Positions 1-34,836 of a stretch of DNA of 34,836 bases are shown piece by piece (the stretch's first letter is position 1; each line of letters starts with the position of its first letter). A model generated the notes under the pieces. That model was not told where the DNA came from and did not search any database. It worked only from the letters and a program-made list of their open reading frames with translations. The stretch covers positions 1-34,836 of IMG/VR virus record IMGVR_UViG_3300032086_001876; one strand, given 5' to 3'. The position numbers and the translations under genes are program-made. The stretch comes from a virus.

Positions 1-91
1 GCATCACATTGGCAGCTGCTATGCCTGCCAAGGCTGATTTGACGCACAAGATCATGTCATCAGTGTCACTGCAAGTTGGTGGCGCGGTAAC
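1..91. repeat. Terminal direct repeat, left copy (circular overlap)
   Basis: Bases 1-91 are identical to 34746-34836 at the far end of the window. The repeat lies inside one coding sequence and the join keeps its reading frame and signal peptide intact. It is therefore best read as the overlap left when a circular or circularly permuted genome was assembled, not as a biological terminal repeat. Its odd length fits a de Bruijn k-mer overlap. Unique genome length is 34,745 bp. Confidence 0.93.
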
Positions 92-467
92 AAGTGCAGA
101 TCGGATTGGCAGCTCATTTCAAATCAGTGGCACAGGCATAGATACCACTGACTCCAATACAGCCAACACTGTTTCAGCTGGAACAATCACAAGCGGCGTA
201 TATTCGCCCGGCACGATTGCAGCCACTCAAGACACCCCAGGTGAAGCCTTTAGCTTCAGCCAGAGCTATACGCAGGCTGATGTGATTCCCACAGCCGCAG
301 TGACGACAGGCAATGCCGCCAACTTTGGCAGCGTTGTTAGCACTGCTGCAGGCACCGCAGGCGACCTGGCAGGCACAATCGCTTCAGATGGAGCTATGAG
401 CATCACGGCCGGTTCGGGGAATACTCTGGCTATCGGTCAGCTGACCACCGAGCTGACCATCAAATGA
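1..467 (+). CDS. Exported phage protein 1 (5' end cut by window edge)
   Basis: This is the main part of a gene that begins at 34721 and runs across the circular join; complete, it encodes 163 residues. The true N-terminus starts MNRALLVLSITLAAAMPAKA, a clear Sec signal peptide with an AKA cleavage site before DLTHK. The mature part is rich in Ser, Thr, Gly and Ala with little charge, suggesting a beta-rich secreted or surface protein. It is the first of three adjacent signal-peptide proteins downstream of a holin-like gene. Its start overlaps the holin-like stop, and its own stop overlaps the next start (ATGA), so translation is coupled. The apparent start near base 9 is an artefact of the linear cut. 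I do not recognise a functional family. Confidence 0.8.
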   Translation, partial: ITLAAAMPAKADLTHKIMSSVSLQVGGAVTSADRIGSSFQISGTGIDTTDSNTANTVSAGTITSGVYSPGTIAATQDTPGEAFSFSQSYTQADVIPTAAVTTGNAANFGSVVSTAAGTAGDLAGTIASDGAMSITAGSGNTLAIGQLTTELTIK

Positions 468-886
468 TTTTGCTGCTGTTGTTGTTAATCGCCGCTCCAG
501 CAGCGGCGGTTCCTGTTACCCCAAATTTTTCCCAGGGGTCCCTCAGTTCAACGACAACAACAAAAACTAAAGTCAATGAGGTCATCAACTCTTATGAGTA
601 CCGCACGGGTTATGAGATGACCGTTTCTGGAACAAACATTGCTCCGAAAAACGGTGAACTCACCCCACGCGAGTTGACCACAATCGTCAACGATGTAAAC
701 GGCATCACCAGCACTTGGACTGGTCTTAATCCAGCTGATAGACCAAGCTGGAGCATCGTCAACGAAGGCGGCAGTTTCCAGCTTCTCGAAACTTTTAACG
801 GCCCTGGGCTTGTGAACCACACGATCATCAACCGCGAAACTGACATCGAGTCGGTTAACGAGACGATTAGCACCTTCACCCAATGA
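464..886 (+). CDS. Exported phage protein 2, hypothetical
   Basis: 140 residues. The first 15 or so residues are a Leu run ending in AAPAAA, a signal peptide without the usual basic n-region, with cleavage likely before VPVTP. The mature protein is polar, with a Thr/Lys stretch (TTTTKTKVNEV) and alternating beta-type sequence. The start overlaps the upstream stop and the stop overlaps the downstream start (both ATGA), so all three exported-protein genes behave as one coupled unit. Its place directly downstream of a holin-like gene suggests envelope action late in infection, but it could also be a virion or host-surface protein. No catalytic motif is visible. Confidence 0.8.
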   Translation: MILLLLLLIAAPAAAVPVTPNFSQGSLSSTTTTKTKVNEVINSYEYRTGYEMTVSGTNIAPKNGELTPRELTTIVNDVNGITSTWTGLNPADRPSWSIVNEGGSFQLLETFNGPGLVNHTIINRETDIESVNETISTFTQ

Positions 887-1590
887 AGCGAGTTATCGCA
901 GCCTTTTTGCTGCTTTCCGCTCCAGCTCAAGCGCAGGTAAGCAGTACAGCCGCACCAGTCGCGAACAGTAGTGGCTCAGTCACTAATCAAAATGTGAACG
1001 TAGCGCCTAGCAGCTCATTTAGTTCGACATACGGTGGCGGAATCAGCTGTCAGTCGGGCACTCTGCATATAGCCCCTTTCCTGATGAGCACTACAAGTTT
1101 TGCAAGCCCCTACGAGCCGTATTACACCGAGCCGGTTTACGACGCAGACAATCCAGGAAATATCCTCTATGAGCAACAGATTCGTACAGGCCAGAAAAAC
1201 AACTTCTCAATCAATGGCGGAATTACTGCAACCTTCTCCATCCCGCTAGATCGTCATCACGTCAGAACCTGTCGGGCAGCGGCAGAAAAACAAGTGGCAT
1301 TGCTCGAAGCAAAGATTGCTCACGAGCGCATGGTGTACGAGATAAAACGCCTCAAAAACTGCTCGGATTTGATGAAGGATGGAATCATGTTTCACCCCAG
1401 CTCGCCTTACAGAAAAATCTGTGCAGACGTAGTGCTAACCAATCCGCCAGGTACTTTGCCGCCCCATACGCATCCAATTACTTACCCAAAGCCCGCCTCA
1501 GATCGCGAATGGCTTGATTCCGGTGACGCTGCTGCGCCCGTCGCTCCTGTAAGGATTCCAGTTTCTCCTTACGGCCAAGCTTCTGATTGA
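883..1590 (+). CDS. Exported phage protein 3 with C-terminal Cys/His-rich part
   Basis: 235 residues. The signal peptide is MKRVIAAFLLLSAPAQA with cleavage before QVSST. A Ser/Asn-rich segment (about 20-50) is followed by an STYGGGISC motif, a region with SFASPYEPYY, and a helical, probably coiled segment (about 128-165, EKQVALLEAKIAHERM). Next come Cys-containing NCSDLMKDGIMFHP and KICADVVLTNP and a His-rich PPHTHP. I recall similar exported proteins from marine cyanophages, function unknown; this was not checked. The last 113 bases overlap the 3' end of the opposite-strand gene ending at 1478, so the C-terminal tail shares DNA with another real gene. Confidence 0.8.
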   Translation: MKRVIAAFLLLSAPAQAQVSSTAAPVANSSGSVTNQNVNVAPSSSFSSTYGGGISCQSGTLHIAPFLMSTTSFASPYEPYYTEPVYDADNPGNILYEQQIRTGQKNNFSINGGITATFSIPLDRHHVRTCRAAAEKQVALLEAKIAHERMVYEIKRLKNCSDLMKDGIMFHPSSPYRKICADVVLTNPPGTLPPHTHPITYPKPASDREWLDSGDAAAPVAPVRIPVSPYGQASD

Positions 1591-2338
1591 TCTTCTTCAC
1601 CACTTTCTTTGTCACCGGTTTGGCTAGCTTTTGCAGCACTGATGCGATGGGCTTGGCAAAAATTGCCGTTGATGTAGCTACGGCAGCCGTAAGGCTTACG
1701 GACGTCAACGGTCCAGCGTCAGGCAGATAATTATTCACTACTTGGCTGACTGGCACAGGGTCCCACAGCTTGATGCACTCGCCGTTTTGCATCTCATAAC
1801 CGGCTAAGACCTCTGTCCCTAATTTGTTAAACGATCCGATTTCTTTTGACCCAAAAGGTGGGCACGGCTTGTTCACTGCCAGATTTGAAATGTCGAGACT
1901 TGCACTTGGCGGATTGGGGAGAGTTGCTGGAGCCGGACTTGAAACCTCTGGCTCTTTTTCTTTCTTTGCGGCTCTTTTAGTGGCCTTGGTCGCGCTCTCT
2001 AGAACCTTGTCCGCAGTTTCAGCATCAACAGCAGGGGCTTCTGTTGGGGCGACTTCTGGTGCTGTCGTCGCTAAAGCAGGATTGAAAACTGGTGGGTTGT
2101 AAGACGGCATCGTTCCGTCACACAGAACGAAGTTGCCGTTCGGATCAGTGTCGTAAGCGTCTTTGTTGCCGGGCTGTGTGTTCCTGGTTTCTACGCATCC
2201 AGGGACCTGGGCAATAGGAAAGCCGAGCAACAGAGTTACCGGCGGTTCAGCTGGGATACTCTGAGGCGGCAGTGCTTGCCAGCTTGGAATCTCTGGAACA
2301 GAGATGACTGGCAACTTAATTTCAGGAATCTCCGGCAT
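1478..2338 (-). CDS. Proline-rich membrane protein, cyanophage-like
   Basis: 286 residues. The N-terminus is a proline-rich repeat-like segment (MPEIPEIKLPVISVPEIP). A region with paired cysteines (GCVET, LCDGT) is followed by an Ala/Glu/Lys-rich linker (about 90-135), then a second Cys region (KPCPPFG, GECIKLWDP). A hydrophobic stretch near residues 205-235 (SVSLTAAVATSTAIFAKP) precedes a very basic tail. This looks like a large periplasmic or virion part tethered by a C-terminal membrane helix, with the basic tail in the cytoplasm. I recall similar proteins among marine cyanophages without an assigned function. The start codon shares a CATG with the start of the opposite gene, and the 3' end overlaps the convergent exported-protein gene. 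Confidence 0.78.
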   Translation of the reverse strand: MPEIPEIKLPVISVPEIPSWQALPPQSIPAEPPVTLLLGFPIAQVPGCVETRNTQPGNKDAYDTDPNGNFVLCDGTMPSYNPPVFNPALATTAPEVAPTEAPAVDAETADKVLESATKATKRAAKKEKEPEVSSPAPATLPNPPSASLDISNLAVNKPCPPFGSKEIGSFNKLGTEVLAGYEMQNGECIKLWDPVPVSQVVNNYLPDAGPLTSVSLTAAVATSTAIFAKPIASVLQKLAKPVTKKVVKKINQKLGRKEKLESLQERRAQQRHRNQAIRDLRRALGK

Positions 2339-2653: not shown

Positions 2654-2887
2654 TCAAGGCATCTTGAACGGCACAGCCGGTCCAGTGCTACTCGGCAGTT
2701 CAGGCATCAACTCATCAACCTGAACAGGCATCATCTGCGTGACCATCTTGGTCATCTCCAGCGTTAGCTCGCTCATGTAATACTTCGTGAGCGATGGAAT
2801 CCGCGTGTAAAGCAGCACCGATCCAGCAACCATCCCCGCAGACATCGTGAATGCTGCAACGGACATCACGTTGAAAAGCTTTTGCAT
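2654..2887 (-). CDS. Small single-pass membrane protein
   Basis: 77 residues. The N-terminal hydrophobic helix spans about residues 8-28 (MSVAAFTMSAGMVAGSVLLY). It is followed by a polar, methionine-rich segment (IPSLTKYYMSELTLEMTKMV) and a proline-rich end. It has the shape of an inner-membrane anchor with a short amphipathic helix. It resembles small proteins I remember from marine cyanophages, role unknown. No Shine-Dalgarno is visible before the ATG. A terminator lies just upstream on the same strand (2901-2927), so this gene may depend on readthrough or a weak local promoter. Confidence 0.7.
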   Translation of the reverse strand: MQKLFNVMSVAAFTMSAGMVAGSVLLYTRIPSLTKYYMSELTLEMTKMVTQMMPVQVDELMPELPSSTGPAVPFKMP

Positions 2888-2966: not shown

Positions 2967-3329
2967 TCAGAAGCTGTACTTCAGGCCAAGCTTGCTACCA
3001 ACTGAAAGTTCGTCGCCAGTGATGCCGCTCAGCTCACCGTAAACAGACACGTTTTCGGAAGCTTGAATAGCACCGCCAAACTTGCCGGCAAATTCAACTT
3101 CGTTCTCAGCGCCGTTAGGCATCACGATTGCAGGTCCACCCTGGATGTAATAGCTGTAAACGCCAGAAGAACCTTCGTAACCTACATCGAGCGTTAGCGT
3201 TCCACCCAGGTACTCGTCACCGTAGGAACCCCCATTGAATTCAGGGTTCACGTAGACGTTCGCGAGCGCAGGAGATGCCAGCGCAGCTGCTGAAACGGCG
3301 ACACCACTCGCAATGAGAAGTTTGAACAT
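2967..3329 (-). CDS. Exported outer-membrane beta-barrel-like protein
   Basis: 120 residues. The signal peptide MFKLLIASGVAVSAAALASP ends in ALA, with cleavage before NVYVNPE. The mature part alternates hydrophobic and polar residues in short Gly-bounded strands and ends in LGLKYSF, with a C-terminal Phe as in outer-membrane barrels recognised by BamA. It contains only enough sequence for a small barrel of about 6-8 strands. A phage-encoded outer-membrane protein could alter host receptors, block superinfection or help lysis; the sequence does not decide between these. It lies downstream of the tail-fibre block on the same strand and is followed by a strong terminator. Confidence 0.72.
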   Translation of the reverse strand: MFKLLIASGVAVSAAALASPALANVYVNPEFNGGSYGDEYLGGTLTLDVGYEGSSGVYSYYIQGGPAIVMPNGAENEVEFAGKFGGAIQASENVSVYGELSGITGDELSVGSKLGLKYSF

Positions 3330-19705: not shown

Positions 19706-22234
19706 TCAAGCGGTGGTGATGTCCTCGATTGAGGCAAAGGCAGATGCCTGACGCACTGCAACATCGAAAGTGATGATGCCGCGAACCGAGGTCAGAGCCT
19801 TGCTGAAGTCATCGGAGTCAGTGCCCACGGTGATTTCAAGGCCGTTGCCGTAGAAGCCGAGCATTGCCTGGCTGAAGTCACCAGCAACCAGAGCGGAGCA
19901 CACGCTGGAGCTAGTGCCCTTGGTCAGGTTGGAGGGCACAGCGTTGGTGACGGCGATCGGGTAGCCGTTCAGGGTCAGAGGCGTGGGGCCACGACCAACA
20001 GCCTGCAGATCGGTGTTGTAAAGGAAAGCACCGTCGGTGGTGGTAGAACCACCAGCGCGGAGTTTCTTCAGGCCACCCATCACCTTGGCGTTGGTGACAT
20101 AAGCCATGTTCGGGCCGAAAGCGTTGTCCTGGGTGACTTCAGTCTCCAGGTCAACGATCTTCTCCATGGTGATGGCACCGCCGTTGGTGCCCATGGCCAC
20201 AGAGCCGATGCCGCTGGTGTTGCGGATGCCGGTGGGCTGACCGGAGGAACCGGAACCGTTGAGCACTGCAGAGTCAACAGCAGCGTTGATACCGTCAGTC
20301 AGATCGCGACGAATCAGCTCCTCAATGCCAGGGGTTGCCTGCAGCAGCGTTTGACGGCTGTAGCGGCTCAATGCAGCCAAGTTCTTGGGCGACATTGAAA
20401 TTTGGTCGAATGTCGATTCCGACTGCGTGATTGCAGTGGTCTCGTTCGCCAGGTAATAGGTAGATGCGACTCCACTCCTTCGCGGAATTGCCACATCACC
20501 GACCAGACCGGTCAGGGTGCGGACGCCAAGGCCAACAACAGGGGAGGAGTTCCGCAGAGCCTCGATGAAGTCATCGGCCAGCAGATCGGTCGCGACAAGA
20601 TTCCCTCCCGTCGTCGCACCGCTTGTCACGTACGTCGCCCGTTGAGACAGGGCAGAGAACGGAACAAAGAAGGAACGCTCACCAGTGGCGCTAAGACCGG
20701 AAGTGCGTGCAACTTCCTGGCTCAGTTCACGAACAAGACCAGCACCATGAGAGGACCAGTCGCCAGTGATCAGGGCACGAACGCCGTCGATCATTGAATA
20801 ACGCTCTTGCACTGACTGACCGAGGTCAACAGGTGCCACGGTCTCGACAGGCTTAGCGCCGATCTTCTCAAGCACAGCCTCACGGGCCACGTCCAGAGAT
20901 GCGCCGTTGTCGATCAGCTGCTCAGCAAGGTCACGCATATCGTGCTTGCCGCACAACTCTTGAATGTTGCGGATGCGGTTGCGCTCTGCAGAAGCTGCCT
21001 TTTTAGAAGCTTCATCGCGCACCACATTGATGTCGGGTGCTGTGGACATTTGATTCTCAGAATCGGGTGAACTTTGTGGTGCGACGCGAGCCGCAGAATC
21101 CGCCGTAATGGCTTCTTCTTTCTCGATTGTAGTAGTGGGAAGCAAGGATCTTCCTACCCCAATCTTGGGATCGGCAGGCACGCTGACGATGGAAACTTCG
21201 TAAGGCTCCCAGTTCGTCGCTACAAACTCATTGTTCCGCTCTTCCATCTCCTTAATCCTGTATCCAACGCTGATATTTCTCATCACGCCATCTTTGACAT
21301 CCGTCAAAATTTCCTGCGCAAAAGAGTTACGGCTAAACCGCACTCGGCTGTAGCCCTTCCTTTTGTCCTTGTCTAAGTAGGCACGCTCAACAACACCGAT
21401 CGGTCGATCCATGTCGTGATTGAACAGCAGCGGTGCGCCGTCGTTAAGTCGGCCAAGGTCAGCTGCGCCATCCTCGTGGCTCAGCACCTCCATGCCAAAA
21501 GCTCGCTCTACTGGATATTCAGAGCTGAAGCTGAACTCCATCACGCGGTCTTCCTGCTCCTCAAACTTTGTTTCGCCAGCCCGCTTGTAAAGGGTGGGTG
21601 CGTAACGCAGAGCAGCAATCTTGGTCAGCGTTGAGAAGCGGTGAGCAACCTGCACATCGGTTGCCTCATTGCCTTCATCGGTCTCGCGATAAACCGTAAT
21701 CAGTGCAGCAGGATCATCCTCGTCACCATTCACGGTGAACTCAGAATCAGGAACATTGATTGTGCCGTCACGCTCAATGCGATCAATGCGGCCCTGTGCA
21801 GTGCCACCTGAGCTGTTCCAACGCACAAAGTCTCCGACGCTAAGTTCGTCGGGCTCGGCCCTTACTTGCGATTCGTCGGACATAGTACGTTCGCGGATTT
21901 CTTTAATTCTATCCGCCTTGTTAGTAGCCCACACCTGCCCTGGGTCTCCGCCCCACGCAGCCCACGCCACACGGCCATTAGATGGGTAGCCGTCTTCTCC
22001 AGGCGAAAAACCTTCGCCTTGTTTGTCTACGGCGTGTCTGGCGAACCAAGCCGACATTTGGATCACAACAGAAGCTGACAGTTCATCGCCGCTCAGGATC
22101 TGCGTGGCTCTGCGTGCCGCAACTTCAGTGCCGCCAGATTCACCGTCAGCCTTCCAATCGCGATGTCGCTGCGCCTCTTCCCTCATGCCCTCAGTAGGCA
22201 TTAGGTCGATCTCTGTGCCGTTAATAGTTGCCAA
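19706..22234 (-). CDS. Prohead protease-major capsid fusion with N-terminal accessory domains
   Basis: 842 residues from TTG at 22234. Residues 20-110 are a small domain seen in phage head proteins (HRDWKADGESGG; MSAWFARHAVDKQGEG; GYPSNGRVAWAAWGGDPG). Residues 130-205 form a tudor-like domain (SVGDFVRWNSSGGTAQGRID). Residues 240-360 are the S78/U35 prohead serine protease with His273 (LFNHD) and Ser322 (MRNISVGY). A helical scaffold-like link (about 370-475) is followed by the HK97-fold capsid (about 480-842; TSGATTGGNLVATDLLADDF; LNGSGSSGQPTGIRN). Protease-scaffold-capsid fusions are known; the added domains are unusual. TTG is chosen because GGAGG (22241-22245) lies 6 bases upstream; the first ATG would overlap deep into the portal gene. 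Confidence 0.9.
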   Translation of the reverse strand: MATINGTEIDLMPTEGMREEAQRHRDWKADGESGGTEVAARRATQILSGDELSASVVIQMSAWFARHAVDKQGEGFSPGEDGYPSNGRVAWAAWGGDPGQVWATNKADRIKEIRERTMSDESQVRAEPDELSVGDFVRWNSSGGTAQGRIDRIERDGTINVPDSEFTVNGDEDDPAALITVYRETDEGNEATDVQVAHRFSTLTKIAALRYAPTLYKRAGETKFEEQEDRVMEFSFSSEYPVERAFGMEVLSHEDGAADLGRLNDGAPLLFNHDMDRPIGVVERAYLDKDKRKGYSRVRFSRNSFAQEILTDVKDGVMRNISVGYRIKEMEERNNEFVATNWEPYEVSIVSVPADPKIGVGRSLLPTTTIEKEEAITADSAARVAPQSSPDSENQMSTAPDINVVRDEASKKAASAERNRIRNIQELCGKHDMRDLAEQLIDNGASLDVAREAVLEKIGAKPVETVAPVDLGQSVQERYSMIDGVRALITGDWSSHGAGLVRELSQEVARTSGLSATGERSFFVPFSALSQRATYVTSGATTGGNLVATDLLADDFIEALRNSSPVVGLGVRTLTGLVGDVAIPRRSGVASTYYLANETTAITQSESTFDQISMSPKNLAALSRYSRQTLLQATPGIEELIRRDLTDGINAAVDSAVLNGSGSSGQPTGIRNTSGIGSVAMGTNGGAITMEKIVDLETEVTQDNAFGPNMAYVTNAKVMGGLKKLRAGGSTTTDGAFLYNTDLQAVGRGPTPLTLNGYPIAVTNAVPSNLTKGTSSSVCSALVAGDFSQAMLGFYGNGLEITVGTDSDDFSKALTSVRGIITFDVAVRQASAFASIEDITTA

Positions 22235-23804
22235 GATCTTCCTCCGCAACGTTCTCTGCATCCTCGCCACCAGGCGCAGGCGTGTCACCAAAGGCGTCGA
22301 TGGTGTTGGCCGGCTTGTACTGGCTAGCGCCGCTGCCATTCACAGCAGACGGGTCGGTGTCCGTGATGATGTTCATCTCGTCGAGCTTGGCCAGCTCTGA
22401 CTGACGGGCGACCAAGAACTCATCAAAGTCCCCACCGTTTTCAGCCACGCAATCAGCAAGGGTCTTGAATCCGCTACGCACTGCTGCCTTCTGTGCAGCG
22501 ATTTCTTTCTGCGGGTCAACGTAGTGGTAGCCCCTGCAGACCCAGCGCACAGCCTCGTAACGCTCAGGCTCAGTCTCGTAAGTAGGCAGATTTAGTGCGC
22601 CACTAAGCACAGCCATCTCAAGCCAAGCGTCATAGATCGGCTGATAAAACTGGTCTTTCATCATCTGCTGAATGGATCGCCAGTTGTCGCGGTCCTGCAG
22701 TAAAGCGAGTCGTGATGAAGAATAATTTGACTGTGAATAATCGTTTGACAGGACTTCGTAGCTGCAGCCGACACCCGCACCGAGTGCCCTGAGCTGTGCC
22801 CTAAGGAACGGCTCATACTCGCCAGTAGGCGAATCCATGTCAGGAATGGTGACCGTTTCGCCTGGCTGCAGGTACTTGAATTGCCCAGGCTCAAAGCCTG
22901 TTACCCGCTGTTCGTCATAGATCTCGCCGCCTGGATCAAGCTCACCCTCCGGTGATTGAATGAATCCCATCAGAGCAGAACTTGCACGAGCACGCACAAC
23001 ACTTGCCTGTTCCCAACCATCTAGGTGGTGCATCCTCTGCATCGCAGATGCAAGCCACGGCACTCCACGGGTCTGGCCAGGACGTGCAGATGTCCGGTCA
23101 AACAGATGGATTACATCTTTGGCCGGAACAATGATGTGGCGCTTGCCAGGTTCCCGCGTAGGGAAAGCAGTATCACCAGGGTGACGGCTCAGGAAGGCGT
23201 AGCTGACAGGCCGGCCAAACTTGTCCAGCTCAACGCCAAGTTTCCAAACGTTGCCAGGCTTGGTTGCAGGGCTGTTGTAGTCCTCGTCAAGCTGATCAGC
23301 CTCAAGCACTTCAAGGGCAAAGCTGACTTTGCTGCGGCCAAACTTCTGCCGCACCATGCGGATAAACACTTCGCCGCTCTCGCACATTGACGAGACAGCA
23401 AGCTTTTCAATATCGGCAAAACACAGCTGGCCTGCAGTATTGCAGCTGTCCTTACGGCCCCACATCGACCAAGCTTTTTCAATCTGCTCGTTAATGCGGG
23501 TGTCGAGCCTGCCGCCACGCTGACGCATCACCTGCGCTTGCAGCCTGACGCCTGTCCCCACAACAGAGTTGCGGACAACGCGGACAGCAGACTTTGCATA
23601 GTCGTTGTCGCGTACAAGCTGACGCGACCTAGACCGCAGGCGCTTCAAGCTGCCCTTAATTTCTTGGTCAGCAGAGGTAACAGAGGTGACCCAATCAGCA
23701 GTCAGGCGACTGGCCTGGGCACCGCCAAACATGCGAGCGCGTGGCCGTGCAATCGGCTCAGGATTAGTGCGCCACAGTTCGCGCCATGCAGAACGGATAC
23801 CCAT
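22221..23804 (-). CDS. Portal protein (lambda B-like)
   Basis: 527 residues, close to lambda B (533). It starts MGIRSAWRELWRTNPEPIAR, has LTADWVTSVTSADQEIKGSL, LVRDNDYAKSAVRVVRNSVV, HLFDRTSARPGQTRGVPWLA, and LRALGAGVGCSYEVLSNDYS with SSSRLALLQDRDNW, all landmarks of the lambda-type portal. Shine-Dalgarno GAGG lies 7 bases from the ATG. It forms the dodecameric ring for DNA packaging and the head-tail joint. The C-terminus (ENVAEEDLGNY) overlaps the TTG start of the capsid fusion. Confidence 0.95.
   Translation of the reverse strand: MGIRSAWRELWRTNPEPIARPRARMFGGAQASRLTADWVTSVTSADQEIKGSLKRLRSRSRQLVRDNDYAKSAVRVVRNSVVGTGVRLQAQVMRQRGGRLDTRINEQIEKAWSMWGRKDSCNTAGQLCFADIEKLAVSSMCESGEVFIRMVRQKFGRSKVSFALEVLEADQLDEDYNSPATKPGNVWKLGVELDKFGRPVSYAFLSRHPGDTAFPTREPGKRHIIVPAKDVIHLFDRTSARPGQTRGVPWLASAMQRMHHLDGWEQASVVRARASSALMGFIQSPEGELDPGGEIYDEQRVTGFEPGQFKYLQPGETVTIPDMDSPTGEYEPFLRAQLRALGAGVGCSYEVLSNDYSQSNYSSSRLALLQDRDNWRSIQQMMKDQFYQPIYDAWLEMAVLSGALNLPTYETEPERYEAVRWVCRGYHYVDPQKEIAAQKAAVRSGFKTLADCVAENGGDFDEFLVARQSELAKLDEMNIITDTDPSAVNGSGASQYKPANTIDAFGDTPAPGGEDAENVAEEDLGNY
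22241..22245 (-). promoter_or_regulatory. Shine-Dalgarno deciding the TTG start of the capsid fusion
   Basis: GGAGG followed by six bases and TTG on the minus strand. It lies in the last codons of the portal gene, so capsid translation is coupled to the portal's end. Confidence 0.75.
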
Positions 23805-33479: not shown

Positions 33480-34223
33480 CTACTGCTCGACAAAGATTGC
33501 CCAGCCGCTCTTGGGCCCGCGATCTTGCCAGCGTTGATGAAATGCAGCCTGTCGGACGCTGACGCGATAACCAGACAGCGCAGGATTGTGCCCGCCCCGT
33601 TCGATGTCAGGCAGCCCAGCTGGGTCCGTCATAAGCCAACTCGGGTCTGATGAATATCGCGATTGGTAGCCGTGCAGGACCGACCAGTGGCCGCACGTCA
33701 GGTTTGAACACATAGGCGGTTCACCGCGCAACATGTTGCCCTGATGCAGCCAGCCGACAAGGACAGGGATGCCAGCGTCAATCGCTTCCATCACGTCCTC
33801 TGCGTCAGCATTGTCAACAAAGCGGACCTGCAGGCCCAAGTTGGTCAGTGCCTCAACGTGAGCGAAAACAGAAGTGGTGTCGCCGTATCGAGCCCTAATG
33901 CGCTCATACTCTTCCTGTGTGGAGATTTTTTTGTAGTACGCGGCCACAGCAGCTGCCGCACTCGTAAAGCACTTGCGCTCACCGCCAGGCAGGTCTAGTT
34001 GCTTGAAGTAACGAGGCAAGTACACCTCCTGGTCAATGCCACTGGCCTTCCACGACTGAAACCATTCAGCGTCTTCAGACAATAATTCTGCGGGCATAGC
34101 CTCCTCTAACTGCTTGATTGCAGCCATGCGATGCGGCACGTCTGGCTTGTACCACTCGAAAAAGGGCAGCAACGCGAGCGCCATGGCGATGACCAGCAGG
34201 GTCACTTGGATGATGCCGGACAA
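33480..34223 (-). CDS. Membrane-anchored C39-like cysteine peptidase (candidate lysis enzyme)
   Basis: 247 residues from TTG at 34223; GTG at 34205 is an alternative. A hydrophobic N-terminus (VTLLVIAMALALLPFF) acts as a signal anchor. The globular part has Cys85 (ERKCFTSAAAAVAAYY), a GIPVLVGWLHQG strand, His179 (CGHWSVLHGYQ) and Asp200 (MTDPAG), the papain-like C39 triad. Known C39-like domains cut peptides; cell-wall use is inferred. There is no other recognisable endolysin in the genome, and a small hydrophobic protein precedes it and a holin-like gene is divergent, so a SAR-type lysis peptidase is the leading idea. Confidence 0.7.
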   Translation of the reverse strand: MSGIIQVTLLVIAMALALLPFFEWYKPDVPHRMAAIKQLEEAMPAELLSEDAEWFQSWKASGIDQEVYLPRYFKQLDLPGGERKCFTSAAAAVAAYYKKISTQEEYERIRARYGDTTSVFAHVEALTNLGLQVRFVDNADAEDVMEAIDAGIPVLVGWLHQGNMLRGEPPMCSNLTCGHWSVLHGYQSRYSSDPSWLMTDPAGLPDIERGGHNPALSGYRVSVRQAAFHQRWQDRGPKSGWAIFVEQ

Positions 34224-34442: not shown

Positions 34443-34724
34443 ATGGCAGAAACTCCACAGCCAAAGGTAGAAGAACAGGACGAACAGCAGCACTCTTGGC
34501 TGGGCGACTTGGTCCGCATCACAATCCTGTTGTGGTCGATGGGCATCCTGACCGCCAACTATCTTGGCATCTTCTCTCAAGCTGTCGATCCGACTTTCCC
34601 GGCCTCGTTGCTCACGGGGACGGCGGCGACTTACACGCCAGCCTTGGGCAAGATTGGCAAGAAAAAGAAGGAAGACAATGGCGTTAACGTAGATAACAGC
34701 AACACCCGCTCTGGCATCAAATGA
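34443..34724 (+). CDS. Holin-like membrane protein
   Basis: 93 residues. A polar acidic start (MAETPQPKVEEQDEQQHSW) precedes a strong membrane helix (LVRITILLWSMGILTANYLG), a turn DPTFPASLLTG with a second hydrophobic stretch, and a basic tail (KIGKKKKED). Size, topology and charge distribution fit small phage holins. Its stop overlaps the start of the first exported-protein gene (ATGA). It is divergent from the C39-like peptidase pair with a 42-base gap. Confidence 0.6.
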   Translation: MAETPQPKVEEQDEQQHSWLGDLVRITILLWSMGILTANYLGIFSQAVDPTFPASLLTGTAATYTPALGKIGKKKKEDNGVNVDNSNTRSGIK

Positions 34725-34836
34725 ACCGCGCACTTTTGGTATTAAGCATCACATTGGCAGCTGCTATGCCTGCCAAGGCTGATTTGACGCACAAGATCAT
34801 GTCATCAGTGTCACTGCAAGTTGGTGGCGCGGTAAC
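34721..34836 (+). CDS. Exported phage protein 1, start (continues at base 1)
   Basis: ATG at 34721 overlaps the holin-like stop; MNRALLVLSITLAAAMPAKA is the signal peptide. The reading frame runs to the window end and, through the 91-base overlap, into the part annotated at 1-467. The two pieces are one 163-residue gene. Confidence 0.88.
   Translation, partial: MNRALLVLSITLAAAMPAKADLTHKIMSSVSLQVGGAV
34746..34836. repeat. Terminal direct repeat, right copy
   Basis: Identical to bases 1-91; assembly overlap of a circular map (see left copy). Confidence 0.93.

What the first reader, a model, noticed from the sequence alone, without database searches (positions are those of the whole stretch)
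464..1590. Three coupled signal-peptide proteins downstream of a holin-like gene
Three consecutive genes (the first crossing the join) each begin with a Sec signal peptide and are ATGA-coupled to each other and to a holin-like gene. Exporting three proteins is costly for a 35-kb phage, and none looks like an endolysin or spanin. They may form an envelope-remodelling, superinfection-exclusion or lysis-assisting system that has not been described.
Basis: partly seen in the sequence, partly recalled or inferred. Interest (0 to 1): 0.75.

Follow-up and report, generated by a model that had tools for sequence, protein, structure and literature searches.

The report
Exported gene trio in cyanophage lysis cassette
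Three secreted phage proteins next to a holin-like gene belong to a gene set shared by about 400 marine cyanophages, and where the set sits suggests it helps these viruses burst host cells when they carry no recognisable spanin and mostly no recognisable endolysin.

Summary
A holin-like gene (HOL) and three genes, P1 (across the circular join), P2 and P3, form an ATGA-coupled operon, and all three products carry Sec-type signal peptides. P1 and P2 are distant paralogs. The gene set is not new: about 400-460 cyanophage records hold each protein, and Sullivan et al. 2010 (PMC3037559) described it as a conserved, mobile 'hypothetical' cluster of unknown function. What I add is a link to lysis. 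(i) In 82 of 84 small siphophage loci an endolysin-like C39 peptidase lies divergently next to HOL. (ii) In T7-like cyanophages HOL-P2-P3 fills the slot between tail fibre and terminase, where sister phages P60 and S-CBP2 keep their endolysin. (iii) Isolates with the trio lack a recognisable stand-alone endolysin, and isolates with the C39 endolysin mostly lack the trio. (iv) Many trio phages are on a published list of 'spanin-less' phages. Best reading (about 0.5): a lysis module whose exported proteins act on the envelope, probably at the outer membrane. No catalytic fold was recognised and nothing is tested in the laboratory. P3 also overlaps a convergent gene antisense, in a fixed phase, across phage groups.

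The parts
34443..34724 (+). HOL: 93-aa holin-like membrane protein (DUF6450, phrog_721; T4-GC 218 in T4-like cyanophages)
34721..34836 (+). P1, first part: start and signal peptide (bases 34746-34836 repeat 1-91)
   Evidence: phrog_564 E 1e-55
1..467 (+). P1, remainder across the circular join (163 aa in all; annotated 'OMP1' in some phages, T4-GC 237)
464..886 (+). P2: 140-aa exported protein (DUF6322, phrog_650, T4-GC 236), distant paralog of P1
883..1590 (+). P3: 235-aa exported protein ('gp165', phrog_848, T4-GC 235), four invariant Cys, beta part plus 42-residue helix in a low-confidence model
1478..2338 (-). X570: convergent 286-aa protein (phrog_570, T4-GC 234), Pro-rich, four invariant Cys, C-terminal hydrophobic segment and basic tail
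1478..1590 (.). 113-b antisense overlap of P3 and X570 reading frames, phase fixed across relatives
2654..2887 (-). S568: small protein called 'plasmid stability' (phrog_568), steady neighbour
2967..3329 (-). OMP417: exported outer-membrane-barrel-like protein (PF24653), steady neighbour
33480..34223 (-). LYS: 247-aa C39-like cysteine peptidase with N-terminal hydrophobic segment, homolog of proteins annotated as cyanophage endolysins, divergent from HOL

Best explanation
HOL-P1-P2-P3 is part of the lysis module of these cyanophages. HOL (inferred holin) sets the time by permeabilising the inner membrane. P1, P2 and P3 are exported by the host Sec system ahead of lysis and collect in the periplasm or outer membrane, with P3 held by disulfides and bearing a long helix. 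When lysis is triggered they carry out the envelope step that spanins perform elsewhere, most likely disruption of the outer membrane. In this phage peptidoglycan is cut by the neighbouring C39 peptidase LYS. X570, a membrane protein with a C-terminal hydrophobic segment and four conserved Cys, may be an inner-membrane partner. Shown by sequence: operon structure, signal sequences, conservation, position in the lysis slot, adjacency to and replacement of endolysin genes. Inferred: holin activity, location, partners and the layer attacked.
For: LYS lies divergently next to HOL in 82/84 loci with room, and P1-P2-P3 follow HOL in 79/79. T7-like P-SSP7, 9515-10a, S-RIP1 and P-SSP3 carry HOL-P2-P3 between tail fibre and terminase, the slot that in P60 and S-CBP2 holds the endolysin. 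LYS absent from all ten trio isolates of a panel and the trio absent from its four LYS isolates; of eight more LYS isolates one has intact P3. Trio isolates lack other recognisable stand-alone endolysins. P-SSP7 and many T4-like cluster phages are listed as spanin-less (PMC6139136). No lipobox candidate that looks like a real gene in the window. Even numbers of invariant Cys in P3 and X570.
Against: No experiment. Spanin-less phages S-PM2, PSS2, P60, Syn5 and S-CBS4 lack P3, so the module is not a general answer. The isolate panel was hand-picked, and the contrast could reflect lineage or habitat. P1-P3 have no lipobox or recognised fold, and models are weak. In T4-like phages HOL lies on the other strand and the cluster is not beside lysis genes. 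Virion-type lysins occur in some trio phages.
Confidence: 0.5

Rival explanations
1. Envelope remodelling or superinfection exclusion: P1-P3 form a complex in the periplasm or outer membrane of the infected cell that blocks adsorption or DNA entry of other phages, or alters transport.
For: All three are exported; two are paralogs and beta-rich; relatives are called 'OMP1' and an outer-membrane-barrel-like gene is a steady neighbour. The set moves between phage groups as an accessory cluster would.
Against: Does not explain the lysis slot in T7-like phages, the adjacency to HOL and LYS, or the near-exclusion with the C39 endolysin.
Confidence: 0.2
2. P2 and/or P3 are themselves a new type of exported peptidoglycan-degrading or peptidoglycan-synthesis-blocking protein, replacing the endolysin rather than the spanin.
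For: Trio isolates have no recognisable stand-alone endolysin while trio-less relatives do; a Sec-exported effector would not need a holin hole.
Against: No catalytic family or fold found; in this window and in DSL-LC03 the trio coexists with LYS. Other endolysin families were not searched.
Confidence: 0.13
3. Thylakoid or metabolic role: in cyanobacteria Sec signals also lead to the thylakoid lumen, and P1-P3 could support photosynthesis or stress tolerance during infection.
For: In T4-like phages the cluster often lies near psbA, hli, talC or plastocyanin genes.
Against: Conserved in small siphophages and T7-like phages at the lysis slot; no similarity to host proteins found by the one pattern-based scan of genome contigs.
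Confidence: 0.08
4. Virion components.
For: In T7-like phages the genes lie next to tail fibre genes, and they are about as widely conserved as structural genes.
Against: Sec export would remove them from the site of assembly. In S-SM1, whose virion proteome was measured (PMC3037559), a detected protein such as T4-GC 969 is labelled 'virion structural protein' and these genes are 'hypothetical'; in S-TIM5 neighbouring genes carry a structural label and these do not. Labels are indirect evidence.
Confidence: 0.05

Closest known systems
Mobile 'hypothetical' cluster of T4-like cyanophages (T4-GCs 218, 219, 234, 235, 237 plus plasmid-stability gene; Sullivan et al. 2010, PMC3037559)
   Same: Same protein families: HOL = 218, P1 = 237, P2 = 236, P3 = 235, X570 = 234.
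   Different: Here in a 35-kb lambda-like siphophage, with HOL moved to the head of the P1-P2-P3 operon and an endolysin-like gene beside it; no function was proposed in 2010.
Two-component and unimolecular spanins (Rz/Rz1, T1 gp11; PMC6139136)
   Same: Exported envelope proteins coded beside holin and endolysin; conserved Cys; overlapping genes.
   Different: No lipobox, no sequence similarity, three exported proteins with cleavable-type signals, and the overlap is between opposite strands.
Lysis slot of T7-like phages (between tail fibre and large terminase genes)
   Same: HOL-P2-P3 occupies this slot in P-SSP7-like cyanophages.
   Different: Proteins are unrelated in sequence to known T7 lysis proteins as far as the libraries show.
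C39-type cyanophage endolysins (S-CBP2, S-CBS1, S-PM2 region)
   Same: LYS is homologous and keeps the candidate Cys-His-Asp triad.
   Different: LYS of this group has an N-terminal hydrophobic segment, as expected of a secreted or signal-anchored enzyme, which the S-CBP2 protein lacks.

Membership tests
Sullivan 2010 cyanophage hypothetical cluster | Homologs of T4-GC 218, 234, 235 and 237 in one neighbourhood | tested here: met
Sullivan 2010 cyanophage hypothetical cluster | T4-GC 219 member present | not tested
   no search was made for this family in the window
Two-component spanin | Outer-membrane lipoprotein with lipobox | tested here: not met
   No lipobox in P1-P3; only two weak candidates in the window, both spurious-looking ORFs
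Two-component spanin | Inner-membrane N-in type II protein with periplasmic coiled coil | tested here: not met
   P1-P3 have cleavable-type signals; X570 has its hydrophobic segment near the C-terminus
Unimolecular spanin | Lipoprotein with C-terminal transmembrane segment | tested here: not met
Works like a spanin (outer-membrane disruption) | Loss delays or blocks lysis at the outer membrane | not testable with these tools
   needs genetics
Phage holin (HOL) | Small protein with at least one hydrophobic segment and charged C-terminus, beside lysis genes | tested here: met
   hydropathy at least 1.6 in 84/87; next to LYS
Phage holin (HOL) | Match to a known holin family | tested here: inconclusive
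   matches only DUF6450 and phrog_721-type families of unknown function
Endolysin (P1-P3) | Peptidoglycan-hydrolase domain | tested here: not met
   no such family in Pfam, PHROGs or NCBIfam
C39-like endolysin (LYS) | Peptidase_C39_2 domain with Cys-His-Asp triad | tested here: met
   PF13529 at 25.8 bits against cut-off 24; C85, H179 and D200 in 85/85
C39-like endolysin (LYS) | Peptidoglycan cleavage | not testable with these tools
   needs an enzyme assay

The most novel reading that the evidence does not exclude
Many marine cyanophages lyse their hosts with a system unlike holin-endolysin-spanin: Sec-exported, partly disulfide-bonded proteins (P2, P3, often P1), triggered by HOL, take the place of the spanins and, in many phages, of the endolysin too.
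Probability: 0.25. Interest if true: 0.85.

Novelty: new variant of a known kind. Interest (0 to 1): 0.6.

Why it matters
How marine cyanophages open the host envelope is unknown: a survey of phage spanins found none in about 20 Prochlorococcus and Synechococcus phages and could only suggest a fragile outer membrane (PMC6139136). A conserved exported trio in the lysis slot, shared by phages of three body types, gives a short list of genes to test. If right, it would name the missing lysis genes of some of the commonest viruses in the sea.

Tried and rejected
AlphaFold2 models of P3 (mean pLDDT 64) and P1 (67) were too weak for fold assignment; Foldseek found only gp165 relatives among viral models and nothing convincing in the PDB, and VIA-align 2 reached at most Z 4.6, on the lone helix of P3, and Z 2.0 for P1. 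Sequence-profile searches of the PDB gave nothing for P3 and only marginal hits to antibody light chains for P1. P3 and P2 share only their signal peptide. One scan of genome contigs for P3 outside phages found only four contigs from unrelated bacterial MAGs that carry the same phage module and look mis-binned. Defence library: no hits. A fusion of P2 and P3 in 9515-10a, suggested by its annotation, is a start-codon error: the two are in different frames. The S-PM2 'lipoprotein precursor' looks RlpA-like rather than a spanin; the next gene has a lipobox-like N-terminus and was not pursued. Promoter and terminator scans gave about what shuffled sequence gives.

Full report
What is there. The window is one circular phage genome (IMG/VR record) with a 91-b terminal direct repeat. 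Across the join runs an operon on the + strand: HOL (34443-34724), P1 (34721 to 467), P2 (464-886), P3 (883-1590), each coupled to the next by an ATGA overlap. Convergent to P3 is X570 (1478-2338), followed by S568 and an outer-membrane-barrel-like gene; divergent from HOL is a C39-like peptidase, LYS (33480-34223). The rest is a lambda-like siphophage: terminase, portal, capsid, tape measure, gpJ, RusA, Erf and exonuclease families.

Families. HOL is DUF6450/phrog_721, P1 phrog_564, P2 DUF6322/phrog_650, P3 phrog_848 and X570 phrog_570, all of unknown function. P1, P2 and P3 match 394, 412 and 461 phage records, nearly all cyanophages by name. P1 and P2 are distant paralogs (hhalign probability 95.7 over 62 columns). 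P3 has four invariant Cys and, in a low-confidence model, a beta part plus a 42-residue helix; no known fold was recognised.

Conservation of the neighbourhood. In 132 distinct IMG/VR loci fetched with P3 or HOL, P1-P2-P3 follow HOL in 79/79 with room, X570 is convergent in 47/47 and LYS lies divergently upstream in 82/84. The same families occur in T4-like phages, in S-TIM5, in siphophages MED4-184 and MED4-117 and, as HOL-P2-P3, in T7-like P-SSP7, 9515-10a, S-RIP1 and P-SSP3. Sullivan et al. [quoted passage not shown]

Why lysis. In the T7-like phages the trio lies between tail fibre and terminase genes, which is where phage T7 keeps its holin and spanin genes (general knowledge). In P60 and S-CBP2, T7-like cyanophages in which the trio was not found, that slot contains the endolysin and small membrane proteins. 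Across isolates, LYS was found in none of ten trio phages, and none of the trio in the four LYS phages of the first panel; of eight further LYS phages, one (DSL-LC03) has an intact P3 frame and one (S-CAM7) a broken remnant. Eleven trio phages also gave no match above cut-off to GH24, GH19, Amidase_2, M15_3 or M23, except GH24 and M15 matches in one 925-aa frame of S-SM1, probably a virion protein. In S-PM2, S-CAM7, DSL-LC03, ACG-2014f and S-CBS2 a GH24 lysozyme lies beside or fused to the C39 domain, which supports LYS as an endolysin. The panel was chosen by hand from hits, so this is a pattern and not a statistical test. Independently, P-SSP7 and most T4-like cluster phages are in the published table of phages without a recognisable spanin; [quoted passage not shown] X570 has such a C-terminal segment (hydropathy at least 1.2 in 74/74; basic tail, median net charge +14) and four invariant Cys, though no signal peptide, so its orientation is unproven.

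Limits. S-PM2, PSS2, P60, Syn5 and S-CBS4 are also on the spanin-less list and lack P3, so the module cannot be the only answer. S-ShM2 has a C39 domain in a large protein next to a tail gene. The holin label, cellular location, partner choice and layer attacked are inference.

A second finding. P3 and X570 overlap antisense in 112 of 114 pairs, by 29 to 215 b, always with a length of 2 modulo 3, including P-SSM2, SynMITS9220M01 and S-TIM5. In the 113-b class (27 sequences) diversity at the X570 wobble position drops from 0.42 outside to 0.14 inside the overlap, and at the P3 wobble from 0.56 to 0.07, as expected if both frames, or another shared feature, are under selection. In MED4-184 the two genes do not overlap.

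Verdict. Observation confirmed; the cluster is known, its function is not; a lysis role is newly supported, at about even odds.

Noticed in passing
1478-1590: Convergent genes P3 and X570 overlap antisense; the overlap recurs in 112/114 pairs in one fixed phase across siphophages, T4-like phages and S-TIM5, with reduced diversity at both wobble positions.
   Followed up: partly
33480-34223: LYS, an endolysin-like C39 peptidase with N-terminal hydrophobic segment and invariant Cys-His-Asp residues; candidate secreted or signal-anchored endolysin.
   Followed up: partly
19706-22339: One 877-aa frame matches both head-maturation-protease and major-head-protein families, as if protease and capsid protein were fused.
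   Followed up: no
2654-2887: The name 'plasmid stability' for S568 rests on annotation only; no Pfam match, and it is largely hydrophobic near its N-terminus.
   Followed up: no
L159 4832-5230 (S-PM2p161): S-PM2, the T4-like phage without the cluster, has near its lysins a protein with a lipobox-like N-terminus (SLSSC), a possible spanin missed by surveys.
   Followed up: no
L146-L149: Contigs binned as Formosa, Lewinella, Sphingobacteriales and a proteobacterium carry the cyanophage module and are probably mis-binned phage contigs.
   Followed up: no
1-91 and 34746-34836: The 91-b end repeat probably marks a circular assembly and not a physical terminus, so the gene across the join is intact.
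   Followed up: no
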